Positions 56,011-58,732 of a stretch of 58,732 nucleotides of DNA are shown here, one piece after another (the stretch's first letter is position 1; each line of letters begins with the position of its first letter). The position numbers were made by a program, and so were the translations under genes. The notes under the pieces were generated by a model, which was not told the DNA's origin, did no database searches, and saw nothing but the letters and a program-made list of their open reading frames with translations. The stretch lies in assembly GCF_027023865.1 (NCBI RefSeq), contig NZ_JALVUC010000001.1:1-58732 (forward strand). Direction: 5' to 3'. The DNA comes from Thermococcus sp. Its GTDB lineage: Archaea > Methanobacteriota_B > Thermococci > Thermococcales > Thermococcaceae.

Positions 56011-57144
56011 TTAGAATTCTCTGAAGACCCTCTCAAGAACGGGGTCTGAAACTTTATATCCTCCGTTTCTTTTCTCAACATAACTCGATTTCACGAGATT
56101 CCCAAGTAGAGACGAGAAGTTGGAGTCGTTGACGTAGCCGAACTTGAGCGTCAGGTAGTCCTTTATGTCCTTCCAGCGGGAATAGCCGAGGCTTATCGCC
56201 TTCAGTATCACCCGGTATCTTGAACTGTAGGCGAAGAGCTTTGACAGCTCACTGTTCACAACTGATTTCGCCTCCCTGAGGATTCCCTCTATGGCATTTT
56301 CGTGTTCTACTCCTCTCGTGATCCTGACGTAGCCGTAGAGGGCCAGTCAGCCGACTATTCCATCGAGTTCCTCAATGGCCCCCTTAATCTCACGCTCGCT
56401 TACCTTGACTTCCCCCCCATTAAAGCCCCTTCTTAGAAACTCGGCGCTCAGCTCCGGACTGAACCTGTTGAGGATTATGTCGTGGTGGTACCTGCCGAAG
56501 AGCGGAGCGTTTGGGTCATTGAACTTGAGGAAGTCAAAGAGCAGACCCACTTCCGAGCCTGCCAAGACAAAGCTCAGGTTCTCGGGATTGTCGATTGCGT
56601 AAGCCAAGATCCCGTCGTACTTTGTAGCCTCACCGAACCGGAGGTACTGGGCTTCATCGAAGGCTATGATGATCCTTCCCGCCCTCTCGCCGTAATCGTT
56701 GGGGGCCTCAAGCAGTTCCGTTATCGAGAACTCCTTGGAGGTTATCTCAATCCTAACCCCTGAGACGCTTACCCCTCTAACCCTTTCGAGGAAGGTCTTT
56801 GCCTCTTCGATGATCCTCTGCCTTCCACTCATCGCTGAGAGCAGCATCTTCCCGATCACGTATCTGTTTACGGAAGAGAACTCCGAGTACGTTTTTCGCA
56901 CGTCTATCTTGATAGATGAGTTGGAAAGCTCGTTGAGGGCAACATTTAGGAGGGAGCTTTTTCCAAGCCTTCTGAGTTCGAGGAGGGGTATCAACCTCTC
57001 CCCGCGTCCTATTGCCTCTTCAAACTCCCTAAGCTCTCGTTCCCTGTCGAACAGTTCCTTCCTCTTCGTCTTTGGGTATGGTGAAAACAGTATTAACTTG
57101 CACCCCCACGAGTTAAAAGGTTTTCCTAGAAACTCTGCCTTCAC
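56011..57144 (-). pseudogene. Archaeal AAA-type ATPase (COG1672-like) with an in-frame TGA
   Basis: Both parts are in one frame and together form a 377-codon ATPase of the archaeal PF01637 group. These carry an N-terminal P-loop NTPase and a C-terminal winged helix. The start region has LFDRERELREFEEAI and a P-loop LRRLGKSSLLNVAL, where the usual first Gly is Glu (LLELRR). Walker B is IIIAFDEAQYLRF and a sensor region is SFVLAGSEVGLL. At 56347-56349 a TGA replaces what is normally a Trp (DGIVG-stop-LALYGY). The winged-helix part then continues to 56011 (GYSRWKDIKDYL). The ATG at 57144 overlaps a weak ribosome site. Confidence 0.75.
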
Positions 57145-57258: not shown

Positions 57259-57411
57259 TCACCTTATGAGCAGTTCCGTTCCGCGGTCGAGCTTCCCGAA
57301 GGAGAAGACTCCACTGGCCGTTACGAACTTGAAGCAGTAGCCCCTAAGGCAGACCCCTATCGTTTTGGTCTTCAGCGGAGTGCTTGGCTCTTCGGAGTAG
57401 TAGTGGCCCAT
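57259..57411 (-). pseudogene. N-terminal fragment of an RsmC-like (MJ0882 type) rRNA methyltransferase
   Basis: Fifty codons from the ATG at 57411 read HYYSEEPSTPLKTKTIGVC, then LRGYCFKFVTASGVFSFGK and LDRGTELLIR, then stop. This matches the N-terminal part of archaeal MJ0882-type SAM-dependent methyltransferases (LRG..FKF.T.SGVFS.GKVD.GT..L). The SAM-binding DLGCGYG motif and everything after it are missing. A full gene would have about 200 codons. The promoter and start appear intact, so a short transcript may still be made. Confidence 0.65.
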
Positions 57412-57805: not shown

Positions 57806-58657
57806 TCAACAGTATCTACTACAAACTGCGTCCGCCCCAAGCATACACCCCCCACCAATTAGTACCCCTTGGACATAATCACATGTTGGATAACATACAG
57901 CGAAACAGAGTGGAGCTGCTAGCCCAAAAGGAAGACAAACTTCCCCACAGGCAACGTCACATCCAACATACCCAACCCCAATGGAACAAAGAACCCATAC
58001 TAACGCCTTGCACACACTACATTTACTAATGTCCATCACTACATTTATACCAACTGCTTTCTGCTGGTTGTATTCTGGAAGTTTGAGCCTCACCAAGTGC
58101 GATAAGTGCCTCAGCTCGTAAGCACTCCTGCCCCAAATCCAGTTCGTCTCATCGTGCTTTCTAAGCTTCATGAGGACCCTGTTGAGAGTCCAGTAATACT
58201 GCGAGAGAGTCAAGTTATTGGCTGTTAGTATCACGTCCCCAACAGGAAGAGACTTCTTCTCATTAGCAGGGGCAATGTTCATTCCAGTTAGATAAGCCCT
58301 GTACTCGCCAGTCTTAGGGTCGGTAAATATCCTCGTGACGATAGTGAAGTTGTACTGGCTCCTCTCGGCGCGATAAACGAGCGCATACATCGTGTAGTTA
58401 AACGTGCTGTTGTACAGGCTAATTCCAAAGAACAATAACTGCTCATGCTTCTTACTCATGTTGTAGAGGGTAACAACTGAGACATTCAGCTTCGGAGTTA
58501 CGTTGGACTTGTGAAGCGGACAACCCTTAGTCAGGTTGGTGAAGTTCACAACCTTGTTCACCCAGGTAACGTTCATCTGGAGTCTACCCTTGTTGTCATA
58601 CCAGGCAACGACAGCCCTGCGGAAGGTTATGCTCGTGCTGTTCGTGCTCATTGCCAT
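57806..58657 (-). CDS. Halocin C8-like cysteine-rich secreted protein (bacteriocin precursor candidate)
   Basis: This is a 283-residue protein. The N-terminal 205 residues are rich in Asn-X-Ser/Thr sites and aromatic strands, as in an extracellular protein. The last 75 or so form a hydrophobic, Gly/Ala-rich domain with 12 cysteines, beginning DISKCSVCKALVWVLCSIG and ending CSRYC with Cys as last residue. CSxCK, VxCxIG, the central LxFGLAAPxC and the Cys-terminated end recall halocin C8. The ATG at 58657 has no signal peptide. Upstream in frame, after a TAG at 58661-58663, lies RRTAFGVFLVAMVLSLQLIAAP, a signal sequence reaching the window edge. So the gene may be longer and broken by the TAG. 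Confidence 0.6.
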   Translation of the reverse strand: MAMSTNSTSITFRRAVVAWYDNKGRLQMNVTWVNKVVNFTNLTKGCPLHKSNVTPKLNVSVVTLYNMSKKHEQLLFFGISLYNSTFNYTMYALVYRAERSQYNFTIVTRIFTDPKTGEYRAYLTGMNIAPANEKKSLPVGDVILTANNLTLSQYYWTLNRVLMKLRKHDETNWIWGRSAYELRHLSHLVRLKLPEYNQQKAVGINVVMDISKCSVCKALVWVLCSIGVGYVGCDVACGEVCLPFGLAAPLCFAVCYPTCDYVQGVLIGGGCMLGADAVCSRYC

Positions 58658-58732
58658 GGTCTACGGAGCCGCAATCAACTGCAGACTTAACACCATGGCA
58701 ACGAGGAAAACTCCAAACGCGGTCCTCCTCCA

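What the first reader, a model, noticed from the sequence alone, without database searches (positions are those of the whole stretch)
57806..58732. Halocin C8-like bacteriocin candidate in a Thermococcales genome
The C-terminal domain has 12 cysteines in about 72 residues with hydrophobic, Gly-rich spacers. Its start (DI..CSxCK, then VxCxIG), central GL.AP.C and Cys as the final residue follow the layout I remember for halocin C8, a disulfide-rich archaeal antimicrobial released from a long secreted precursor. Here too the domain ends a long precursor with a signal sequence upstream and is followed by a small membrane protein. If right, this is a hyperthermophile antimicrobial peptide system, little described in this order.
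Basis: partly seen in the sequence, partly recalled or inferred. Interest (0 to 1): 0.85.

Follow-up and report, generated by a model that had tools for sequence, protein, structure and literature searches.

The report
Mix-and-match archaeal peptide-toxin genes
This hyperthermophilic archaeon and about a third of its relatives carry secreted precursor proteins that share one constant front half but end in many different cysteine-rich, halocin C8-like tips, each followed by its own matching membrane gene that probably protects the producer, which looks like a swappable antimicrobial system; the copy in this window appears broken by a stop codon.

Summary
The C-terminal 75 residues (12 Cys) match NCBIfam halocin_C8_dom TIGR04449 end to end: E 1.1e-4, 23.1 bits, cut-off 24. 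Same-framework relatives on the same precursor exceed the cut-off. The window domain scores 68.3 bits on a profile of those relatives; the best of 500 Cys-preserving shuffles scores 41.4.

The larger finding is modular. A conserved ~230-residue secreted chassis occurs in 29 of 94 Thermococcales genomes, three times in this one. It carries at least a dozen different Cys-rich end modules. The next gene, mostly a membrane protein, follows the module and not the chassis: homologous in 98 of 104 same-module pairs and 0 of 840 different-module pairs, including 58 with chassis at least 85% identical. Homologues of other modules' membrane genes follow as apparent orphans and occur in genomes lacking the chassis.

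I read this as a polymorphic bacteriocin family with cognate membrane immunity. HalC8 itself draws immunity from its own precursor. The window's copy has a TAG at the end of its signal peptide and is probably silent; its neighbour gene is intact. Toxicity and immunity are inferred, not shown.

The parts
57809..58033 (-). 12-Cys halocin C8-like module, 75 aa from the conserved junction Asp to the C-terminal Cys
   Evidence: TIGR04449 1-69/69, E 1.1e-4; 68.3 bits vs max 41.4 in Cys-preserving shuffles; 44% identical to the over-cut-off module in L058; 94% identical in L075
58034..58732 (-). Conserved precursor chassis (mature part 58034-58657) plus signal-peptide coding stretch, cut by the window end; the first 5' codons are on contig C23 (locus L051)
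   Evidence: 88.6% identical to own-genome paralogue; 29 of 94 Thermococcales genomes
58661..58663 (-). In-frame TAG at the end of the signal peptide (AP*TMAM; APQAMAM in most relatives)
   Evidence: the same codon is TAG in L080
57521..57775 (-). 84-aa membrane protein with three predicted TM segments, candidate cognate immunity protein
   Evidence: homologue (46%) directly downstream of the same module in G041; module/next-gene association
57806..58657 (-). 283-aa ORF as listed (chassis without signal peptide plus module)

Best explanation
This is one member of a modular (polymorphic) archaeal bacteriocin family of Thermococcales. Shown: a constant chassis with a signal peptide and many N-x-S/T sites, an exchangeable Cys-rich module joined at a conserved junction (a Gly followed within about ten residues by an Asp), and a module-specific next gene that is usually a membrane protein. 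Inferred: Sec export; disulfide formation; the chassis holding the hydrophobic module inert until a protease cuts near the junction Asp; the freed peptide acting on membranes or surfaces of related competitors; the paired membrane protein giving self-immunity; extra membrane genes giving immunity to rivals' modules. In this window the toxin gene is probably inactivated by a nonsense codon while the immunity gene is kept.
For: TIGR04449 match and shuffle control. Over-cut-off modules on the same chassis. Three own-genome copies with 82-86% DNA identity that ends at the chassis/module junction. Module swapping both ways: chassis 96% with module 49%, and chassis 56% with module 98%. Next gene follows the module, 98/104 vs 0/840 pairs; label-shuffle control, 0 of 2000 reach the observed value. 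Orphan homologues of other modules' membrane genes behind toxins, including own-genome C23 and C25, and in genomes without the chassis. Even Cys counts in all but one module. Purifying selection on modules. Conserved TATA-like upstream region. Many broken copies beside 30 intact ones.
Against: No activity data. The window module alone misses the TIGR04449 cut-off by 0.9 bits, and the model gives weak hits in unrelated control genomes at loose thresholds. The paired membrane genes diverge faster than the modules (94% vs 45% for the window pair), which is odd for strict one-to-one immunity. For several module types the next gene has only one predicted TM segment. No protease gene was identified. 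Structure models were too poor to use.
Confidence: 0.76

Rival explanations
1. Self/non-self recognition or adhesion system like VARTIG: the variable tip stays on the cell surface and is recognised by kin rather than released as a toxin.
For: Variable C-terminal region on a conserved secreted protein with subfamily-specific membrane genes is also what is described for VARTIG in Thermococcales (PMC8416519).
Against: Some modules are TIGR04449 halocin C8-like; no Ig domain was found by Pfam; orphan membrane genes in genomes without the chassis fit immunity better.
Confidence: 0.1
2. Secreted signalling peptide system: the module is a pheromone and the paired membrane protein its receptor.
For: Paired polymorphic peptide and membrane protein is also the pattern of pherotypes; orphan receptors could exist.
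Against: Modules of about 60-126 aa with 6-20 Cys are unlike typical peptide pheromones; the paired genes tested have no recognised receptor or kinase domain; halocin C8 homology points to a toxin.
Confidence: 0.06
3. Metal-binding or redox domain, i.e. the Cys cluster coordinates metal rather than forming disulfides.
For: Cys-rich.
Against: No metal-binding family hit; even Cys counts in 44 of 45 modules; secreted context; hydrophobic Gly/Ala-rich spacers; TIGR04449 match.
Confidence: 0.03
4. A plain halocin C8 orthologue in which the N-terminal part of the precursor gives immunity, as HalI does.
For: Same overall layout: long secreted precursor, domain at the C-terminus, similar length (283 aa reported for ProC8, PMC11509114).
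Against: The N-terminus is nearly constant while modules differ completely, so it cannot easily be module-specific; no similarity to a haloarchaeal precursor N-terminus.
Confidence: 0.05

Closest known systems
Halocin C8 (ProC8/HalI/HalC8), NCBIfam TIGR04449
   Same: Cys-rich hydrophobic domain at the C-terminus of a long exported precursor; full-length profile match
   Different: The chassis has a hydrophobic Sec-like signal and is unrelated to the haloarchaeal precursor tested; 12 Cys instead of the 10 in the haloarchaeal domain read here; immunity probably from a separate membrane gene; many alternative modules, most not TIGR04449
Polymorphic toxin systems (PMC3482391)
   Same: Constant N-terminal part, exchangeable C-terminal toxin, cognate immunity gene directly downstream, orphan immunity genes
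   Different: Modules are small disulfide-rich peptides and not enzymes; the precursor is small; no dedicated secretion machinery seen; paired genes encode membrane proteins
VARTIG modules of Thermococcales (PMC8416519)
   Same: Order-specific hypervariable loci with subfamily-specific downstream membrane genes
   Different: VARTIG proteins are large with Ig domains and no identified toxin; here the chassis is about 230 aa and the tips are Cys-rich, some halocin C8-like
Second precursor type in Thermococcales with a TIGR04449 domain (L052, L080:10635, L095, L096)
   Same: Secreted precursor ending in a TIGR04449 domain, followed by a membrane-protein gene
   Different: Unrelated N-terminal part and an additional ~170-aa secreted protein gene behind it

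Membership tests
Halocin C8 domain family (TIGR04449) | Profile match over the curated cut-off (24 bits) | tested here: inconclusive
   Window module 23.1 bits, full length; relatives with the same 12-Cys framework on the same chassis score 33-45 bits; window is 44% identical to one of them
Halocin C8 domain family (TIGR04449) | Conserved Cys framework, C-terminal position | tested here: met
   Spacing matches over-cut-off member L058 in 9 of 11 intervals; ends in Cys; shuffle control
Halocin C8 precursor (ProC8 type) | HalI-type N-terminal part that gives immunity | tested here: not met
   No similarity between chassis and a haloarchaeal halocin C8-like precursor; chassis constant across unrelated modules. 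HalI itself was not held; one Haloferax precursor was used
Halocin C8 precursor (ProC8 type) | Export of the precursor by the Tat pathway | tested here: not met
   Chassis has a hydrophobic signal without a twin Arg in most copies; in the window copy the signal is cut by TAG
Halocin C8 | Growth inhibition of related archaea by the released peptide | not testable with these tools
   needs experiment
Polymorphic toxin system | Constant N-terminal part with exchangeable C-terminal modules | tested here: met
Polymorphic toxin system | Module-specific immunity gene directly downstream, plus orphan immunity genes | tested here: met
   Genomic association only: 98/104 vs 0/840, orphans; protective function not tested
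VARTIG | Ig domains in a large surface protein | tested here: not met
   No Ig family in Pfam scans; precursor about 300-360 aa

The most novel reading that the evidence does not exclude
A hyperthermophile-specific polymorphic bacteriocin arsenal: one secreted chassis displays a dozen or more unrelated disulfide-rich peptide toxins, and producers and bystanders collect matching membrane immunity genes, so immunity is encoded separately from the precursor, unlike halocin C8. The many broken toxin genes and the orphan immunity genes would record an arms race among Thermococcales at vents.
Probability: 0.65. Interest if true: 0.82.

Novelty: new variant of a known kind. Interest (0 to 1): 0.73.

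Why it matters
Characterised peptide antimicrobials of archaea are few and come mainly from haloarchaea and Sulfolobales. A modular, order-wide family in genetically tractable Thermococcales would give many disulfide-rich, presumably heat-stable peptides. It would also give a direct test of how archaea gain self-immunity: separate membrane proteins against the precursor-derived HalI of halocin C8. Pairs sharing a chassis but not a module, or a module but not a chassis, are natural swap experiments.

Tried and rejected
Distant chassis relative in a Woesearchaeota contig (L102): it is glutamate dehydrogenase, a chance pattern match. Chassis outside Thermococcales: none in the other genomes of the phylum set, viral contigs or plasmids. 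Fold of chassis and full protein: pLDDT 46 and 36, fold search without a significant hit; not used. PDB sequence search: nothing. PADLOC: nothing. Homology of the two Thermococcales precursor types' N-termini: not seen. Weak Pfam hits (Borrelia_P13, Claudin_3, DUF5357 and others) lie below gathering scores and were ignored. Operator-like palindrome TGACCANNTGGTCA: exact only once in the own genome, left open. TAG at the same codon in two genomes: treated as recurrent loss; translation as an amino acid has no support here. Makarova et al. 2019 (mBio), which from memory expands the halocin C8 family to diverse archaea, is not held, so earlier mention of Thermococcales members cannot be excluded. 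Script: the paralogue breakpoint part failed for the window row because the gene is truncated, so the breakpoint rests. One call failed on wrong coordinates and was redone.

Full report
Observation. The ORF at 57806-58657 (-) is as described: 283 aa, with a C-terminal 75 residues holding 12 Cys. TIGR04449 (halocin_C8_dom) matches the isolated domain over all 69 positions at E 1.1e-4, 23.1 bits against a cut-off of 24; in the whole protein it gives 18.6 bits. Because this model also gives weak hits in unrelated control genomes at loose thresholds, I built a separate profile from five over-cut-off modules of Thermococcales and one Haloferax domain. The window scored 68.3 bits; 500 shuffles keeping all Cys in place reached at most 41.4, and full shuffles at most 30.2. 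The nearest over-cut-off member, L058, is 44% identical with nearly the same framework. The module is therefore a real halocin C8-like domain by relationship, though not by the curated cut-off alone.

State of this copy. Upstream in frame, the C25 paralogue reads ...LQLIVAPQAMAMSTN; the window reads LQLIAAP*TMAMSTN, with TAG at 58661-58663 where the two own-genome paralogues have CAA. The window ends inside the signal peptide; contig C23 overlaps the last 127 bases at 100% and carries the rest with a TATA-like upstream region. Both contig ends probably share reads, so this is not independent confirmation of the TAG. The simplest reading is a disabled toxin gene next to an intact 84-aa membrane gene.

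A modular family. The own genome has two further chassis copies, at C25 and C23, with 82-86% DNA identity that stops at the chassis/module junction. The chassis is found in 29 of 94 Thermococcales genomes, and in no other genome of a 115-genome phylum set. Across loci, 45 modules of 49-126 aa fall into 17 groups, with some groups related. Cys counts are 6, 8, 10, 12, 16 or 20, with one exception of 7. Each module has an Asp shortly after the last conserved Gly of the chassis, and in most before the first Cys, a candidate processing site (inference). Modules and chassis exchange: L071/L065 share a 98% identical module on 56% identical chassis; L066/L068 share a 96% identical chassis with 49% identical modules; the window and L075 share a 94% module on 72% chassis. 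dN is far below dS in modules, so they are maintained as proteins. About 30 precursors are intact and roughly 18 are broken by stops, frameshifts or deletions (some may be assembly errors).

Paired gene. For every module I took the longest ORF starting within 130 nt downstream. With related groups merged, the next gene is homologous in 98 of 104 same-module pairs and in 0 of 840 different-module pairs. This holds where chassis are below 75% identical (44 of 46) and where upstream flanks are unrelated (67 of 70). None of the 58 different-module pairs with chassis at least 85% identical shares a homologous next gene. Pairs are not independent because of shared ancestry, but the chassis and flank controls show that the association is with the module. 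Label shuffles gave at most 28 against 83 observed in an earlier, unmerged version. By a simple hydropathy scan the next genes are mostly membrane proteins with 1-7 predicted segments. No specific known family was found for those tested.

Orphans. In the own genome, C23 carries its own paired gene and then genes matching the partners of two other module types; C25 carries one for another type, plus a truncated relative of the 20-Cys partner upstream (by inspection). The partner of module type 1 is found in genomes with no chassis match, such as G056, G057, G080 and G091. A relative of the window's partner lies in G029, also without chassis. Orphan immunity is the usual explanation for such genes in toxin systems (general knowledge of polymorphic toxins, PMC3482391).

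Mechanism. I infer export by the signal peptide, oxidation to a disulfide-rich peptide, cleavage near the junction Asp and action on related cells, with the partner protecting the producer's membrane. None of these steps is shown. The faster divergence of the partner than of the module is unexplained.

Comparison. Halocin C8 is made from a 283-aa precursor whose N-terminal part, HalI, gives immunity (PMC11509114). Here the N-terminal part is constant over unrelated modules, has no similarity to the Haloferax precursor tested, and a separate gene tracks the module. The system thus looks like a halocin C8-type bacteriocin in polymorphic-toxin format, and only some modules are TIGR04449 members. 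The library searched holds no description of it in Thermococcales that I could find; one key paper was not held.

Noticed in passing
L052:4955-5719 (-), L080:10635-11426 (+), L095:5216-5998 (-), L096:4602-5384 (+): A second Thermococcales precursor type with a TIGR04449 domain and an unrelated N-terminus, followed by a membrane-protein gene and a ~170-aa secreted protein (the two apparently fused in this genome).
   Followed up: partly
window 57262-57411 (-): Fragment of a methyltransferase-like gene (MGHYYSEEPSTPLKTKT...GTELLIR) that is full length downstream of other loci of this family (L064, L079, L090, L091); a sign of recombination at this site.
   Followed up: no
window 56011-57144 (-): ATPase-like gene apparently split into 265-aa and 82-aa ORFs by an in-frame stop or frameshift.
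   Followed up: no
L049, L053, L057 and others, about 15-30 nt upstream of the start codon: Conserved palindrome-like TGACCAACTGGTCA between a TATA-like element and the start of most chassis genes, possibly an operator; exact only once in the own genome.
   Followed up: partly
L080:5261-5986 (+): Same signal-peptide codon is TAG as in the window, in another genome.
   Followed up: partly
L103:4293-5451 (+), Haloferax larsenii plasmid NZ_CP078064.1: Haloarchaeal halocin C8-like gene is also followed directly by a 68-aa hydrophobic protein gene, so separate immunity may exist there too.
   Followed up: no
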